Positions 1,787 through 34,795 of a stretch of DNA of 39,221 nt are shown here, piece by piece. Under the pieces are notes generated by a model, which was not told the origin of the DNA, did no database searches, and worked only from the letters and a program-made list of their open reading frames with translations. Made by a program: the position numbers and the translations under genes. Numbering within the stretch: position 1 is the stretch's first letter; each line of letters opens with the position of its first letter. This DNA is from Candidatus Pacearchaeota archaeon (GTDB taxonomy: Archaea > Nanobdellota > Nanobdellia > Pacearchaeales > GW2011-AR1). The stretch is taken from positions 1 to 39,221 of the forward strand of contig JACOYJ010000024.1 of assembly GCA_016181885.1 (NCBI GenBank). Reading direction: 5' to 3'.

Positions 1787-2584
1787 ATGGAACAAGCAAT
1801 ATTAATTCCAAGAGAAATAAGAGAAGCGGGTTTTCCTACAGCGAGGTATCTTAATGAAGGTGAACAAGCAAGATATGACGAAGCTGTTAGGAGTTTTAAT
1901 AGCGAGAAAGCTAGGGAAACCTTAAGAGTTCCATTAAATGGCTCAAATTTATTCAAAGTGCTTTTACTAAACAAATTAGGAATAAGGACAGCAACTATAC
2001 AAGAACTGGAAATGATTGTTGACCAGAATCCTGGCATGTTAAAAGGACATTATGAAGATAGTCCATCTGTTGTTTTATTCTCAATTAATACTTCTTATGC
2101 TCCAAACAAACCTTTAGCCAAGTCATTATCTAAATTAGTTGGAAAACACGAATATCCAGTTCTTATGACTGGTCTAGAGCCTGTTGAAGACCATAGCACT
2201 GATTATGGGCTAAGCCTTAAGCCAGGAGACAAATTTCAATTTACTGAAGCTCCTGAATTAGCTTATGCTAATCATGGAAGAAAGTTTTTAAGATTAGATG
2301 AAAGGGGCATGCCCATATTTGATGATAAAGGAACAAGAACTCTTCATACAAGGCAAGATGGACTTTCCAGGGTTTACCTGGGCTGGGGTCTCGGCCTGGT
2401 CTCGTACGGCGAGTATCTTGCTGGCTCTGACGAGGATGGTCGGGTGGTCGTCGTCAGCGCCGAAGGCGCTGCAAACTTAAAATTGCAAGAGCATATGTTA
2501 AAATTAACTGCTGAAAGAGATAGGCAAAATGATGCAAATGAAGAAAGATTTCAAAGAGCATTAGCTATAATGAAGAATAATTAA
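1787..2584 (+). CDS. DGR target (variable) protein
   Basis: A 265-residue protein whose residues 193-220 are encoded by the variable repeat. Residues 1-190 hold a region with LNKLGIRTATIQELEMI and EDSPSVVLF. The region around the VR (GLSRVYLGWGLGL...LAGSDEDGR, then VVVVSAEG) fits the C-type-lectin-like fold used by DGR targets, in which the varied residues form the binding surface. A charged, probably helical tail of about 40 residues follows, so the VR is not at the extreme C terminus. No signal peptide or TM segment is visible, so the product looks cytosolic or is exported by another route. Compared with the template, 12 residues differ (Asn to Gly, Val, Tyr or Asp; Arg to Trp; and others). 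The ATG is supported by the TATA spacing. The ligand is unknown. Confidence 0.88.
   Translation: MEQAILIPREIREAGFPTARYLNEGEQARYDEAVRSFNSEKARETLRVPLNGSNLFKVLLLNKLGIRTATIQELEMIVDQNPGMLKGHYEDSPSVVLFSINTSYAPNKPLAKSLSKLVGKHEYPVLMTGLEPVEDHSTDYGLSLKPGDKFQFTEAPELAYANHGRKFLRLDERGMPIFDDKGTRTLHTRQDGLSRVYLGWGLGLVSYGEYLAGSDEDGRVVVVSAEGAANLKLQEHMLKLTAERDRQNDANEERFQRALAIMKNN
2362..2447 (+). repeat. DGR variable repeat (VR)
   Basis: An 86-bp segment that aligns without gaps to the template repeat at 2750-2835. There are 68 identities and 18 differences, and every difference is at a template A (14 A to G, 4 A to T, none to C). Nine template adenines are unchanged. No C, G or T of the template is altered. This adenine-only pattern is the hallmark of mutagenic retrohoming. 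The A to G bias makes the VR conspicuously GC-rich. Confidence 0.97.
2455..2471 (+). promoter_or_regulatory. Hairpin/cruciform downstream of VR
   Basis: CAGCGCC-GAA-GGCGCTG is a perfect 7-bp GC stem with a 3-nt loop, 7 bp after the last VR position that matches the TR. DGRs such as that of phage BPP-1 need a DNA hairpin/cruciform just 3' of the VR for efficient target recognition. The position and form here fit that role. The bases also encode the SAEGA stretch of the target protein. Confidence 0.75.
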
Positions 2585-2614
2585 ATTTTAAAACTAATTT
2601 TTCTTTAAAATTTT

Positions 2615-2635
2615 CCTAGCCATATAATGGCTGGG
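2615..2635 (+). terminator. Hairpin after the DGR target gene
   Basis: CCTAGCCAT-ATA-ATGGCTGGG can form a 9-bp stem (one T-G pair) about 30 bp after the target stop codon. It is preceded, not followed, by a T-rich run. It may end the target transcript, stabilise an RNA end, or mark the start of the TR RNA. Confidence 0.35.
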
Positions 2636-2742
2636 CCACACGCTTGTTAATAGCACTTCTTAATTGAAGTCATAAAATTCAACCACGACATTAAGTAACG
2701 CAAGTGAAATATGAAGTGGTGGTGATTTACTTTTAATTAATA

Positions 2743-2846
2743 AGCTAGCACTTTCCAGAGTTTACCTGGACAGGGATCTCAACCTGAACTCGAACAACGA
2801 GAATCTTGCTAACTCTAACGAGAATGGTCGAATGGCTCAGCTAGCT
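2743..2846 (+). repeat. 7-bp inverted repeat bracketing the template repeat
   Basis: AGCTAGC (2743-2749) abuts the first TR base and can pair with GCTAGCT (2840-2846), 4 bp beyond the last matching TR base. In RNA this would close the TR into a loop of about 90 nt. Neither arm is present at the VR, so the arms are outside the transferred segment. Confidence 0.55.
2750..2835 (+). repeat. DGR template repeat (TR)
   Basis: An 86-bp donor for the VR, lying 388 bp downstream in the same orientation and in the classical target-TR-RT order. It holds 27 adenines. Read in the VR frame it has many AAC/AAT codons (LDRDLNLNSNNENLANSNEN), the codons that give the widest residue choice under adenine mutagenesis. 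It ends 23 bp before the RT start at 2859. Confidence 0.97.
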
Positions 2847-2858
2847 AGGATTTTAATA

Positions 2859-3977
2859 ATGAAAACTTATAAAAATCTTTATCAGGAAATTTACAACTTA
2901 AACAATTTAATTCTTGCTTGGAGAAAAGCAAGAAAAGGAAAAACCAAGAAAGATTATGTGATTGAGTTTGAAAAAGATTTAATAAAAAATTTGCTGGATT
3001 TGCATAATGAATTGAAGAATCAAACTTACAAGCCATTGCTATTAAGAACTTTTATTTTACGAGATCCAAAAACCCGTAAAATATCCGAGTCAGATTTTAG
3101 AGATAGAATAGTTCATCATGCTTTAATAAGAATCTTAGAGCCAATTTTTGAAAAAAGATTTATCTATGATTCATGCGCCAACCAAAAAAACAAAGGCAAT
3201 TTATTTGCATTGAAAAGATTTTATTATTTTATGGGAAAAGTTTCTAGAAACGGAAAAACAAACGGATGGTTTAATGTTAATCAAATTAGAGGATATTGCT
3301 TAAAAGCAGACATTAAACATTATTTTGAAGAAGTTGACCATGAAATATTGATTAATATTATTAAAAGAAGGGTTAGAGATGAAAAAGTTATGGGGTTGAT
3401 TGAAAAAATATTAAAAAATAGCTCAGCGTTGAGGGGGGGGGGCGTTGCGCCTGAAGGCTCAACTTCCAGATATTTTTTCTCACGAAAAAACATAGGGGCG
3501 AAGCAGTTTTTCAGTAAAAAAGGAATGCCTCTCGGGAATTTAACAAGCCAGTTTTTTGCTAATGTTTATCTTAATGAACTTGATTATTTTGTAAAACATA
3601 AATTGAGAGCTAAATATTATATAAGATATGTTGATGATTTTGTAATTTTGCATAAGTCTAAAGAACAATTAGAATATTGGAAAAATAAAATCGGCAATTT
3701 TTTAGTGGAAAAATTAAGGTTGGAACTTCATCTGGACAAATCTAGAGTAATCCAATTAAGCAGAGGAATAGATTTTGTCGGTTTTAGGAATTTTTATTAT
3801 TTTAGGCTATTGAGAATTAGGAATATCGGAAAAATGCTATTTAAGATTAAGAGATACAAAAAAGAAGAAATAACTAAGGAAAAACTCCTTGAAAGTTTTC
3901 AAGGTTGGAATGCTTATGTTAAGTGGGCGGATACACTTAAATTAAGGAGAAAAATTGTCAGCAGAATTTACTCTTAG
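2859..3977 (+). CDS. DGR-type reverse transcriptase
   Basis: A 372-residue protein. An in-frame ATG at 2832 lies inside the TR, so I take the ATG at 2859 (MKTYKNLYQEI), which matches the usual start of DGR RTs. Motifs: LKADIKHYFEEV with Asp151 (catalytic metal site), GMPLGNLTSQ at 222-231 (the DGR form, where group II intron RTs have QGG...SP), YVDD at 257-260 (catalytic Asp pair), and GIDFVGFR near the thumb. There is no maturase or endonuclease domain, so it is not a group II intron protein. Residues about 188-221 form an unusual Gly/Ser/Lys-rich insertion just before motif 4, containing a G10 homopolymer. The enzyme would make error-prone cDNA of the TR. No Avd gene is seen between target and TR. 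Confidence 0.93.
   Translation: MKTYKNLYQEIYNLNNLILAWRKARKGKTKKDYVIEFEKDLIKNLLDLHNELKNQTYKPLLLRTFILRDPKTRKISESDFRDRIVHHALIRILEPIFEKRFIYDSCANQKNKGNLFALKRFYYFMGKVSRNGKTNGWFNVNQIRGYCLKADIKHYFEEVDHEILINIIKRRVRDEKVMGLIEKILKNSSALRGGGVAPEGSTSRYFFSRKNIGAKQFFSKKGMPLGNLTSQFFANVYLNELDYFVKHKLRAKYYIRYVDDFVILHKSKEQLEYWKNKIGNFLVEKLRLELHLDKSRVIQLSRGIDFVGFRNFYYFRLLRIRNIGKMLFKIKRYKKEEITKEKLLESFQGWNAYVKWADTLKLRRKIVSRIYS
3433..3442 (+). repeat. G10 homopolymer inside the RT gene
   Basis: Ten consecutive G residues lie in the RT insertion and encode R-G-G-G. Nearby GTTGAG and CTCAAC can pair across it. Loss or gain of one G would truncate the RT before its YVDD motif. It could be a slippage (phase-variation) site or an uncertain base count. 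Confidence 0.7.
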
Positions 3978-30802: not shown

Positions 30803-33800
30803 ATGCCAAAAAAAGACGATGAGAAAACTGAAAAATCCGGAGAGCCCGGGCTTACTGACTTGCCTGGAATTGGACCGGCTGTTGCTGCGAAACTTGAGAG
30901 TGCTGGAGTTTTTGATTTAATGTCTTTAGCTGTTATGAGCCCCAACACTTTGGCAGATGTTGCTGGCGTCGGAACTGCTGTTGCGAGAAAAGCAATACAA
31001 GCAGCGAGAGAGATGCTTAATTTGGGTTTTACCGACGGCGTTGAGTTTGCGCAGAGGAGATCAAATATCTCTTATATTACTACTGGAAGCAAGAATCTTA
31101 ACCAACTACTTGGGGGAAAGGGGATTGAAAGCAGGTCTATAACTGAAGCTTTTGGAGCTTATGGAAGCGGGAAATGTGTGAGTAAAGATACACCCGTTTC
31201 TTATTTTAATGATGCTAGAATGCATGTAGAAAGTATAGAGAAAACCTATGATAAATACAAAGTGAAAAATGGAGAGCAGATTGTAAAGGGTGGATTTGCT
31301 GTACCTCTTTCTACAGTTAAAGTTCTTGCATGGGCAGATGGAAAATTAAAGATAGTTAAAACAGATAATTTATATAAAGAGAAAGTAGAAAAATTATTTG
31401 TAATTAAGACAAAGAGAGGCAGAATATTGAGAGTTACAGGAAATCATCAAATTCTAAGTTTTGACCATGGTGTTAAGTGGAAAAAATCAATGATTTTATC
31501 CGAAGGTGATTTAATTGCCTCTCCTAAATGCATAAATTTAGAAACAGAAACATTTTATAATGAAGATGATGCTTATTTTTTAGGTTTATTTGTGGCTGAA
31601 GGAACTTTTAATCCGTTTTCAATTTCAATTTCTTCTAAGGAAATTAAAGAATGGGTTTGTAACTACATAAGGAAAAAATTTGGATATTTGCCAACAATAA
31701 GAACTTCTAATAGAAGCGGCAGAGATGTTTATACTATTTTGTTGAGAAATAGCACCAGAGTTATTATGAATGGACTGGATAAATGCAATGCTGAAGCCAA
31801 GTTTGTTCCAGAAGCTATTTTTTTATCATCAAAGAATGTTATTTTATCATTTTTAGGTGGGTATTTTGACGGGGATGGTGAAGTTTCTAGAAAAGATATA
31901 TCTTCAACCACAAAAAGCACTAGACTTGCAACCCAATTATGTTACCTGCTTTTAAGATTAGGGGTTAGCGCAACTGTAAGAGAAAGAAAAACCAAGAAAT
32001 ATGGGAACTTTAAAGTAGTTAGGATAAGTGGAGAAGATAGAGAGAAACTTAAAGATGTTAAATTTAAAATAAAAAGCTTTAATCCTCTAATAAAAAATAG
32101 TGCTTACGGATATCCAAGAAAAATAATCTCTTTTATTTCTGAACTCTATAAGGAGAGTATTGGGGGGAATAGGGGTAACATAAGGAAAGTTATCGGAAAA
32201 GTTAATACACAAAACACAGCATATCAAAATTTAACTAATAGGTCTCGCGCAAATGTAATTAACACAAAAACTTTGGATAAAATAGAAAATTTGTTCTCCT
32301 TACAAAAAGATAGCTTTATTTCTATTATTAATAACTTAGAGAAGAAGGTATTTTCTATTGACTTGTTAAGGAGGATTTATCCTTATTTGCCATTTGCATT
32401 TAGTAATTTAGCTGAAAACATGAGTATAAAAAAGAAGAGTATTAGAAATTATTATAGCAGAAAAATTCCAAAAGATAAATCAGAGTTGTTAAGAAATCTT
32501 ATTATTAATGAACTAAAAACACGGGTTGATACTATTTATATGGCTTTGGAAATTATCTCTGAAATAAGAATATTTAATTGGGATATTGTGGAATCTGTCG
32601 AAATGGTTGATTATGATGATTATGTCTATGATTTTGTTGTCCCAGAAGGACATTCATTTGTTGGTGGAAATATGCCCACGATGATGCATAATACCCAACT
32701 TGGTTTGACATTGGCCGTAAATGTGCAATTACCTGTGGAGCAGGGAGGTGCAAATGGAAAATGCGTTTTTATAGATACAGAAGGGACGTTTAGGCCTGCG
32801 AGAATAAAACAAATTGCCGAGGGGCTTGGGGCTAATCCGGAAAAAGTCTTGAAAAATATTTTAGTTGCAAGAGCTTTTAATTCTGATCATCAGATTTTGC
32901 TTTTAGAGAAAGTTTCTGAACTTATAAAATCCGGAGAGCCAATAAAAATTGTCATTGTTGATTCTCTTACGGCGCACTTTAGGGCTGAATTTGCGGGAAG
33001 GGGACAGCTTGCAGACAGGCAGCAGAAACTTAATAGGTATCTCCATGATTTGATGAGACTTGCCGAAACACATAATCTTGCTGTTTATGTCACAAATCAG
33101 GTTATGGCCAATCCGGCAATGATGTTTGGAGATCCAACAACTGCTATTGGGGGGAACATCGTGGGGCATGCATGCTTAACTGGAGATAGCTTAATACAAC
33201 TAAGTGATGGAAGCATAAAAGAAATAAAAGACATGAATAAAGATAATGTGATTTCTGGAAATTTTAATAGAATGAGTTTTGAAGGTGCAGATTCTGAAAT
33301 GAAGTTTGTAAATCCCGATATTGATAAGGTTTATGAGATTCAGACTACTAATAATATAAAATGTTCTTCATTGCATAGATTTTTTACAATTGATAATTTT
33401 TCTATTATTGAAAAAGAAGCTAAAGACTTGAAAGAGGGAGATTTTGTGGCTCAGGCTGGGAAACTTGATATTTTAGGGGAAGAACAAAAATTGCCTTTAA
33501 TTAATGTTAAGAGAATTGGAAAAATCTCTGAAGAAGATTCTAATAAAATTGTTGAGGAATTAAAGAAAGAGAACACGACTAGAGATGAAATATGCAAAAA
33601 AATCGGCATAACCCCGAGACAATTTAGAAGAGTTTTGAATCAAGCTTATCCCACAAATTTAGAAGTTTTTGACAAATTAAGGGAGCATTTTTCTGGAAGG
33701 CTGCAATTACAGACAATTCAAGTTCAAACCCACAAGCATAGAGATTTAATTATGCCCCAAGTCATGACTCAGATGCTTGCACAACTTTGTGGTTATTTTA

Positions 33801-34795
33801 TTGGATATGGAAATTTTGAAGAAGGGGGCTTGAGGTTTAAAGATGAAAGATTTGAGGTTTTAAATTATCATAAAAGCTTATTTAAAGAAGTTTTTAATAT
33901 TGAAGGCAGTATAGCCAAAATAAAAAACAAAAATTGCTTTATCTTAAATGTTAATTCTAGAGAAATAAAAGGTTTATTCAGTTTAATAATCCCTAATGTT
34001 TTTAACTATGTTGCCAAGTGCAAGAATGAAATTGTTGGAGCTTTTATTCAAGGTTTTATAGATGCAGAAGGAAGTATTGACAAAAAAAGGCCAATAATAA
34101 AAATTGCCCAAAAAGAGAAGCAGATACTTAAGTATTTACAGTTGTTTTTATTAAGATTTGGAATAAGGAGTTTTTTAAGGTTTGATGTTGGAAAAAAGAA
34201 AATATCAAATCTTTCAATAAGAGACAGATCTGTAAAGGATTATTTGCAAATAGGGTTCACAGCTTTAGATAAACAAAAACAACTTTTAGCATGGATTAAT
34301 TATGTAAATAACACTTATGACAAAGAGATGATGCCGATAAAAAGAAAAGAGCTTTGGAGTTTACTAAAAGACGTTGGATTAAAACCTTCTAAAATTATTA
34401 CGTCAAGAGATTTAGGTTATCAATGGATTAATAGAAAAGAGTTAGAAGGAGCTTTAAAGGCATTGATGAATGTTAGAATTAAAGACAGACAGATTAAGCA
34501 AAAAGTTGAATTTATTTCAGGATTATTGAACTCTGATTTTAGATTTGAAAAAATCAGGAAGATAGAAATTAGAGAGAACAAAGATAAAGAGCTTTTTTAT
34601 GATTTTTCTGTTCCTTCAAATGAAAATTATACTGCTGATGGCTTTGTTGTTCACAATTCAACCTACAGAATGTATTTGAGAAGAAGCAAGAAAGATTCGA
34701 GAGTTGCCAAATTAATTGATAGTCCAAATTTGCCAGACAGCGAGTGCATTTTCTTTGTTAGCAATGCAGGAGTTATTGACGGGGAGGTTGAGTGA
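30803..34795 (+). CDS. radA: DNA recombinase RadA, interrupted by two inteins
   Basis: The 1330-residue precursor holds a 329-residue RadA in three exteins (1-124, 631-790, 1286-1330). Extein 1 has the N-terminal helix-hairpin-helix domain ([19 protein letters not shown]) and the P-loop start AYGSGK; extein 2 has [10 protein letters not shown], Walker B (KIVIVDSL), loop 1 and the [15 protein letters not shown] block; extein 3 has [12 protein letters not shown] and the C-terminal ATPase part. RadA forms filaments on ssDNA and drives strand exchange. Intein 1 splits the Walker A motif between K and T, so the precursor cannot bind ATP until spliced. CTTAAAAA about 25 bp before the ATG fits a leaderless start. 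Confidence 0.97.
31175..32692 (+). other. Intein 1 in RadA (Walker A site), LAGLIDADG type
   Basis: 506 residues, from Cys125 (CVSKDTPV) to Asn630 (MMHN), followed by Thr as the +1 extein residue. Splicing blocks: N-terminal Cys, LRVTGNHQI (TxxH block), the late block [14 protein letters not shown] and the C-terminal HN. The homing-endonuclease part has [10 protein letters not shown] (about intein residues 134-143) and [11 protein letters not shown] (about 227-237), the two LAGLIDADG helices. All key splicing residues are present, so it should be active. Confidence 0.95.
33173..34657 (+). other. Intein 2 in RadA (GHA/STYR site), LAGLIDADG type
   Basis: 495 residues, from Cys791 ([13 protein letters not shown]) to Asn1285 (FVVHN), followed by Ser. 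[10 protein letters not shown] corresponds to the TxxH block but has Ser-Ser-Leu-His, so the first residue is changed. The endonuclease part has [11 protein letters not shown] (degenerate, lacking the acidic residue) and [11 protein letters not shown] (intact). Loss of one acidic residue may weaken DNA cutting, while the splicing ends are intact. A helical insert ([20 protein letters not shown], a helix-turn-helix-like part) precedes it. Confidence 0.93.

What the first reader, a model, noticed from the sequence alone, without database searches (positions are those of the whole stretch)
2362..3977. Complete diversity-generating retroelement with adenine-only TR/VR substitutions
Over 86 aligned bases, 18 of 27 template adenines differ in the VR while all 59 non-adenine positions are identical. 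Fourteen changes are A to G and four A to T. The TR encodes Asn-rich codons, the order is target-TR-RT, and the RT carries the DGR-type motif LGNLTSQ and YVDD. Only adenine-directed mutagenic copying explains this. DGRs in DPANN archaea are known as a class, but this target family and its ligand are not identified here.
Basis: partly seen in the sequence, partly recalled or inferred. Interest (0 to 1): 0.92.

Follow-up and report, generated by a model that had tools for sequence, protein, structure and literature searches.

The report
Archaeal self-mutating gene cassette (DGR)
A tiny uncultured archaeon carries a known kind of cassette that rewrites one of its own genes by error-prone copying at adenines; around it I find that an uncharacterised RNA family (Rfam RT-16) is very probably the folded handle of the RNA template that gets copied, in this and dozens of related cassettes.

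Summary
VR 2362-2447 and TR 2750-2835 match at all 59 non-adenine positions and differ at 18 of 27 adenines (14 A>G, 4 A>T). One refinement: two of the 18 (GAAT>GGGT at the 3' end) recur in nearly all related cassettes, so they are a fixed IMH/IMH* difference, not random mutation. The element is a chromosomal diversity-generating retroelement of the DPANN-archaeal type described by Paul et al. 2015: DGR-type RT, no Avd found, VR and GAA-triloop hairpin (2455-2471) inside the target gene. The target family has no Pfam match; its model is confident and only weakly C-type-lectin-like. The genome holds at least four such template RNAs. New here: Rfam RF03019 'RT-16 RNA' (2615-2753; 113 bits) ends at the TR start. 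In relatives, 34 of 35 TR rows (33 distinct TRs) have it on the TR strand, including four cassettes with the RT on the other strand; five or six more have RT-16, TR and VR but no nearby RT. Sequence 5' of RT-16 pairs with the TR's 3' flank (62 loci, permutation p<0.0002). RT-16 is therefore very probably the scaffold of the DGR template RNA; prior publication of this could not be checked fully.

The parts
1787..2584 (+). Target (variable) protein gene, 265 aa; no Pfam, PHROG or PDB sequence relative; VR near the C-terminus followed by a 44-aa helical tail
   Evidence: 19 of 92 related genomes hold relatives
2362..2447 (+). Variable repeat (VR), about residues 193-220 of the target
2443..2444 (+). 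IMH-type fixed difference (GG here, AA in the TR at 2831-2832)
   Evidence: 36 of 46 related TR/VR pairs end in an AAT; it reads GGT in 30 of them (28 GAAT>GGGT plus 2 CAAT>CGGT); 38 of 39 with AAT in an overlapping second set
2455..2471 (+). Homing hairpin CAGCGCC-GAA-GGCGCTG inside the target coding sequence (encodes SAEGA)
   Evidence: stems covary, loop stays GRA
2615..2753 (+). RT-16 RNA (Rfam RF03019), proposed 5' scaffold of the DGR template RNA
   Evidence: 113.1 bits, gathering score 50
2614..2620 (+). 5' strand of long-range helix a (TCCTAGC), pairs with 2844-2850
2628..2635 (+). 5' strand of long-range helix b (TGGCTGGG), pairs with 2836-2843
2750..2835 (+). Template repeat (TR), eight Asn (AAY) codons when read in the VR frame
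2836..2850 (+). 3' strands b' (CTCAGCTA) and a' (GCTAGGA), directly after the TR
2859..3977 (+). DGR reverse transcriptase (ORF open from 2832; conserved start at 2859)
   Evidence: RVT_1 2.8e-19; PHROG RT 3.3e-117; PDB 8ub7 6.5e-37; ANMV-1 RT 8e-70
3429..3518 (+). In-frame insertion of about 25 aa in the RT loop before motif 4, with a G10 run, absent from the aligned relatives

Best explanation
This is a chromosomal diversity-generating retroelement of the DPANN-archaeal type. A transcript running from about 2614 to at least 2850 folds so that the RT-16 domain and two long-range helices (a/a', b/b') hold the TR as a loop with defined ends. The RT, apparently without Avd, recognises this scaffold, copies the TR and misincorporates opposite template adenines. 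The cDNA replaces the VR in the target gene, guided by the GAAT/GGGT junction and the GAA-loop DNA hairpin just downstream. The result is a library of target proteins that differ at about 8-14 residues on one face of a ligand-binding domain, probably a divergent C-type-lectin fold. Shown by sequence: the TR/VR pattern, RT family, IMH difference, hairpin, RT-16 match and its position, and the long-range pairing. Inferred: RT binding to RT-16, priming, present-day activity, the ligand.
For: TR/VR pattern; 46 analogous pairs in relatives with A>G 356, A>T 176, A>C 27. RT family. Hairpin at 15 of 16 VR sites in genomes with the RT against 4 of 12 without (Fisher 0.001, sites not independent). RF03019 on the TR strand, 3' end within -7..+6 nt of the TR start in 32 of 34 matched rows (outliers 15 and 35), 34 of 35 rows having it; one TR is counted twice, so 33 distinct TRs. 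This includes G063:C25, G015:C30, G019:C168 and G023:C28, whose RT lies on the opposite strand. RT and RT-16 co-occur in 28 genomes (33 with RT, 30 with RT-16, of 92). RT-less RT-16+TR+VR cassettes. Cognate 5'/3' flank duplexes -20.1 against -13.5 kcal/mol, permutation p<1/5000, median rank 4.5 of 62; control stretches have median rank 28-31. Unconstrained folding of window 2605-2856 gives the a/a' and b/b' helices.
Against: No expression, read or biochemical data. Loci are related, so permutation and Fisher values overstate independence; one control stretch (+45..+85) also gave p=0.0004, though its median rank was 29. In the window helices a and b can also pair with each other locally, as in the Rfam model. 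Foldseek finds no significant fold match for the target. The RT has a unique insertion and could be impaired.
Confidence: 0.93

Rival explanations
1. RT-16 is a cis-regulatory leader of the RT mRNA (for example hiding the RT ribosome-binding site) rather than part of the template RNA.
For: In the standard order it lies upstream of the RT, and in the window helix a' covers an AGGA 8 nt before ATG 2859 (sequence).
Against: It stays with the TR when the RT is on the other strand (four cassettes), persists in cassettes with no nearby RT, and AGGAC follows the TR in inverted cassettes too.
Confidence: 0.08
2. The cassette is a relic: the VR records past mutagenesis but this RT no longer works.
For: Unique RT insertion with a G10 run; no read data.
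Against: The RT frame and YVDD and LGNLTSQ are intact; 59 of 59 non-adenine positions are still identical, so the last copying was recent or drift is slow; another RT in the same genome could act in trans.
Confidence: 0.15
3. The two repeats are a duplicated segment diverged by ordinary mutation or adenine deamination.
For: Most changes are A>G.
Against: No change at 59 non-adenine positions; A>T also occurs; the same pattern appears in dozens of other TR/VR pairs beside related RTs.
Confidence: 0.01

Closest known systems
DGRs of DUSEL4 Nanoarchaeota (Paul et al. 2015, PMC4372165)
   Same: Several distinct DGRs per small DPANN genome; IMH GGGT against IMH* GAAT; GRA-triloop hairpin inside the target gene; orphan target families
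   Different: Target not shown to be of the same family; that paper, in the passages searched here, does not describe the RT-16 scaffold or TR-closing helices
AvpA (PDB 5IOO; Handa et al. 2016, PMC5006420)
   Same: Internal VR followed by a tail of about 45 aa that encodes the hairpin; archaeal DGR target
   Different: AvpA motifs GXXVVVYAH, HPXXXPFXG and RFXGV are not in this target; no PDB sequence hit
Bordetella phage BPP-1 DGR (mtd/avd/TR/brt)
   Same: Adenine mutagenesis, IMH, post-VR hairpin, related RT
   Different: BPP-1 has Avd and a structured spacer 3' of the TR (PMC12875486) and a GRNA tetraloop (PMC3240598); here no Avd was found, the structured domain is 5' of the TR, and the loop has three bases
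Rfam RF03019 RT-16 RNA
   Same: Window 2615-2753 is a full-length member, 113 bits
   Different: Rfam calls it only an sRNA; here it is tied to the TR, with pairing partners 3' of the TR that the Rfam model does not include
ANMV-1 virus DGR
   Same: Closest RT in the phage collection (38% identity)
   Different: No RF03019 match at the gathering score; viral target adtA

Membership tests
Diversity-generating retroelement | Two near repeats differing only at template adenines | tested here: met
Diversity-generating retroelement | RT of the DGR clade with (I/L/V)GxxxSQ motif | tested here: met
   LGNLTSQ; motif defined in PMC3521204; best matches are phage RTs including ANMV-1. No RT tree was built.
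Diversity-generating retroelement | VR inside an ORF, near its 3' end | tested here: met
   VR followed by 44 codons
Diversity-generating retroelement | IMH/IMH* difference and inverted repeat downstream of the VR | tested here: met
Diversity-generating retroelement | Avd accessory protein (common, not universal) | tested here: not met
   No ORF between TR and RT; no PF05635 match in the genome, which is 85% complete. Not treated as defining.
Diversity-generating retroelement | Demonstrated mutagenic retrohoming | not testable with these tools
   needs reads or experiment
DPANN-archaeal DGR subtype (DUSEL4-like) | GGGT/GAAT junction and GRA triloop inside the target gene | tested here: met
   description
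AvpA target family | Three AvpA sequence motifs | tested here: not met
   motifs absent from P0001
C-type-lectin fold | Structural match | tested here: inconclusive
   pLDDT 89; 13 of the top 25 PDB hits are C-type lectins or lectin-like receptors but best lectin E = 0.29
RF03019 RT-16 RNA | Score above curated gathering threshold over the full model | tested here: met
   113.1 bits against 50, model 1-158

The most novel reading that the evidence does not exclude
Rfam's RT-16 RNA is the 5' scaffold of the template RNA of Avd-less archaeal DGRs. Together with helices formed across the TR it makes a self-contained template module, and such modules with their target genes exist without their own RT and are served in trans by an RT encoded elsewhere in the same small genome.
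Probability: 0.75. Interest if true: 0.7.

Novelty: new member of a known kind. Interest (0 to 1): 0.55.

Why it matters
How DGR RTs that lack Avd pick their template is open to test once the template RNA is known. These data name the RNA, give its borders and pairing partners, and supply natural inverted and RT-less cassettes as controls. They also suggest that tiny archaea run several diversifying systems from a shared RT pool, and give an uncharacterised Rfam family a likely function.

Tried and rejected
Remote VRs for this TR elsewhere in the genome: none. Target relatives in named genomes by single protein: none; the target alignment was too diverse to scan with. TR/VR pattern in viral contigs: none. 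Target in phages: none. Sequence link between this target family and two other local target families: none by hhalign. The A>C deficit looked striking, but C is already reported as the rarest substitution in DGRs (PMC3521204). An excess of changes at 4-fold sites vanished once terminal IMH adenines were excluded. The RT insertion is not a repeat found elsewhere in the genome (only weak partial matches). Weinberg et al. 2017 and Paul et al. 2017 are not in the library, so prior linking of RT-16 to DGRs could not be excluded.

Full report
Observation. The 86-nt pair is exactly as described: 59 of 59 non-adenine positions identical, 18 of 27 adenines changed, 14 to G and 4 to T. The target ORF (1787-2584) and RT (2832/2859-3977) are intact. 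An A-tolerant search of the whole 1.1-Mb, 85%-complete genome finds only these two copies.

Setting. The window is chromosomal: SAM synthetase, a RadA-like gene with inteins, an aminotransferase, a type II/IV secretion ATPase, a prepilin-type peptidase and others. The nearest RTs in named genomes are Pacearchaeota, Woesearchaeota, Micrarchaeota and Aenigmatarchaeota. In phage records the nearest RT is that of ANMV-1, a virus of an uncultured archaeon with a known DGR; in the PDB it is 8ub7, listed as 'Reverse transcriptase' (I believe this is the Bordetella phage DGR RT, from memory).

Relatives. From 92 related genomes I fetched RT loci and scanned for A-specific repeats. 46 TR/VR pairs were analysed. 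Excluding terminal adenines, the substitutions are G 356, T 176, C 27; the rarity of C is known for DGRs. In 36 pairs an AAT lies at the very 3' end of the TR; in 30 of them both A's read G in the VR, and in a second archaeal set, which overlaps the first, 38 of 39 do so; among 114 pairs from viral contigs only one has it. This is the TGGAAT/TGGGGT IMH difference reported for nanoarchaeal DGRs, so two of the window's 18 changes are fixed rather than random.

Hairpin. Downstream of the VR the window has CAGCGCC-GAA-GGCGCTG inside the target gene (-8.5 kcal/mol, z -2.55). Relatives have different stems with the same GRA-type loop. At homologous positions in this target family it is present in 15 of 16 sites from genomes that have the RT and 4 of 12 from genomes where no RT was found. 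This matches what is known for archaeal DGRs and the requirement shown in BPP-1.

Target. The family has no Pfam, PHROG or PDB sequence relative. AlphaFold with 23 natural sequences gives pLDDT 89, with the VR on strands near the C-terminus and a long helix after it. C-type lectins dominate the Foldseek list but none is significant. The fold is therefore likely but unproven. The N-terminus shows no evident signal peptide by eye; this was not tested formally.

Template RNA. The 5' flank of nearly every related TR carries conserved, covarying sequence. It is Rfam RF03019, RT-16 RNA: window 2615-2753, 113.1 bits. Of 35 TR rows tested, 34 have it on the TR strand; one TR of L112 appears twice, so these are 33 distinct TRs. 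In 32 of the 34 its end lies within -7..+6 nt of the TR start; the two exceptions (15 and 35 nt) coincide with shortened TR calls. In four cassettes the RT is on the other strand and RT-16 stays with the TR. In G000:C48, G022:C38, G039:C6, G020:C34 and G049:C19 an RT-16+TR module sits beside a target with an A-specific VR and no RT was found within the 2-3 kb examined; all five of those genomes have an RT elsewhere. G055:C154 is similar but lies on a 3.9-kb contig and no RT was found in that genome. RT-16 is found in 18 of 20 named archaeal RT loci, in 1 of 20 viral-contig loci, and not in ANMV-1.

Closing helices. The 3' flank of the TR begins with a strand that pairs with sequence just 5' of the CUACACG box of RT-16, followed by AGGAC-like sequence that pairs with GUCCU-like sequence further 5'. 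Own partners pair much better than partners from other loci (62 loci), with clear compensatory sets such as GUCCUGACA/UGUCAGGAC, GUCUUAGUC/GACUAAGAC, GUCUCAGCAC/GUGCUGAGAC and GCCUUAG/CUAAGGC. Unconstrained folding of the window RNA gives these helices. The TR is thus held as a loop between the RT-16 core and the closing helices. Binding by the RT is inferred.

Copy number. RT-16 matches lie on contigs C53, C48, C9 and C37 of this genome, so at least four template RNAs; RT pieces are on C53, C9, C37, C50 and C61. This resembles the four or more DGRs per DUSEL4 nanoarchaeal genome.

Verdict. The locus is a new member of a known kind. The added value is the likely assignment of RT-16 as the DGR template scaffold and the RT-less cassettes. 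I could not read the paper that I believe defined RT-16 (Weinberg et al. 2017), so priority is uncertain.

Noticed in passing
G000:C48 (L296), G022:C38 (L300), G039:C6 (L301), G020:C34 (L302), G049:C19 (L304), G055:C154 (L298): Cassettes with RT-16, TR and a VR-bearing target but no nearby RT; L296 and L298 share a similar downstream gene. Probably served in trans, though G055 has no RT found.
   Followed up: partly
L076, L078, L083, L113: Inverted DGRs: RT on the strand opposite to target, VR, RT-16 and TR.
   Followed up: yes
window 3429-3518: RT insertion of about 25 aa with a G10 run, unique among the aligned RTs; could be an assembly or mutation-prone spot.
   Followed up: partly
window 30803-34795: Rad51/RadA-like protein of 1330 aa with two intein-splicing stretches and LAGLIDADG domains.
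   Followed up: no
L003 1486-1923 (G000:C61): SMC-like N-terminus apparently interrupted by an intein-like sequence after GPNGSGK, next to an RT fragment (read by eye only).
   Followed up: no
L120, L121 (G008): Tandem paralogues of the target family in a genome with no RT match and without the post-VR hairpin, as if freed from diversification.
   Followed up: partly
L227, L216: Rfam RT-15 and RT-14 RNAs lie just upstream of DGR-like RTs in viral contigs; other RT-numbered families may also be DGR template RNAs.
   Followed up: no
L212 (IMGVR_UViG_3300036859_000782): Viral-collection contig with an archaeal-type DGR: RT-16, GGAATG>GGGGTG junction, 44% identical RT.
   Followed up: no
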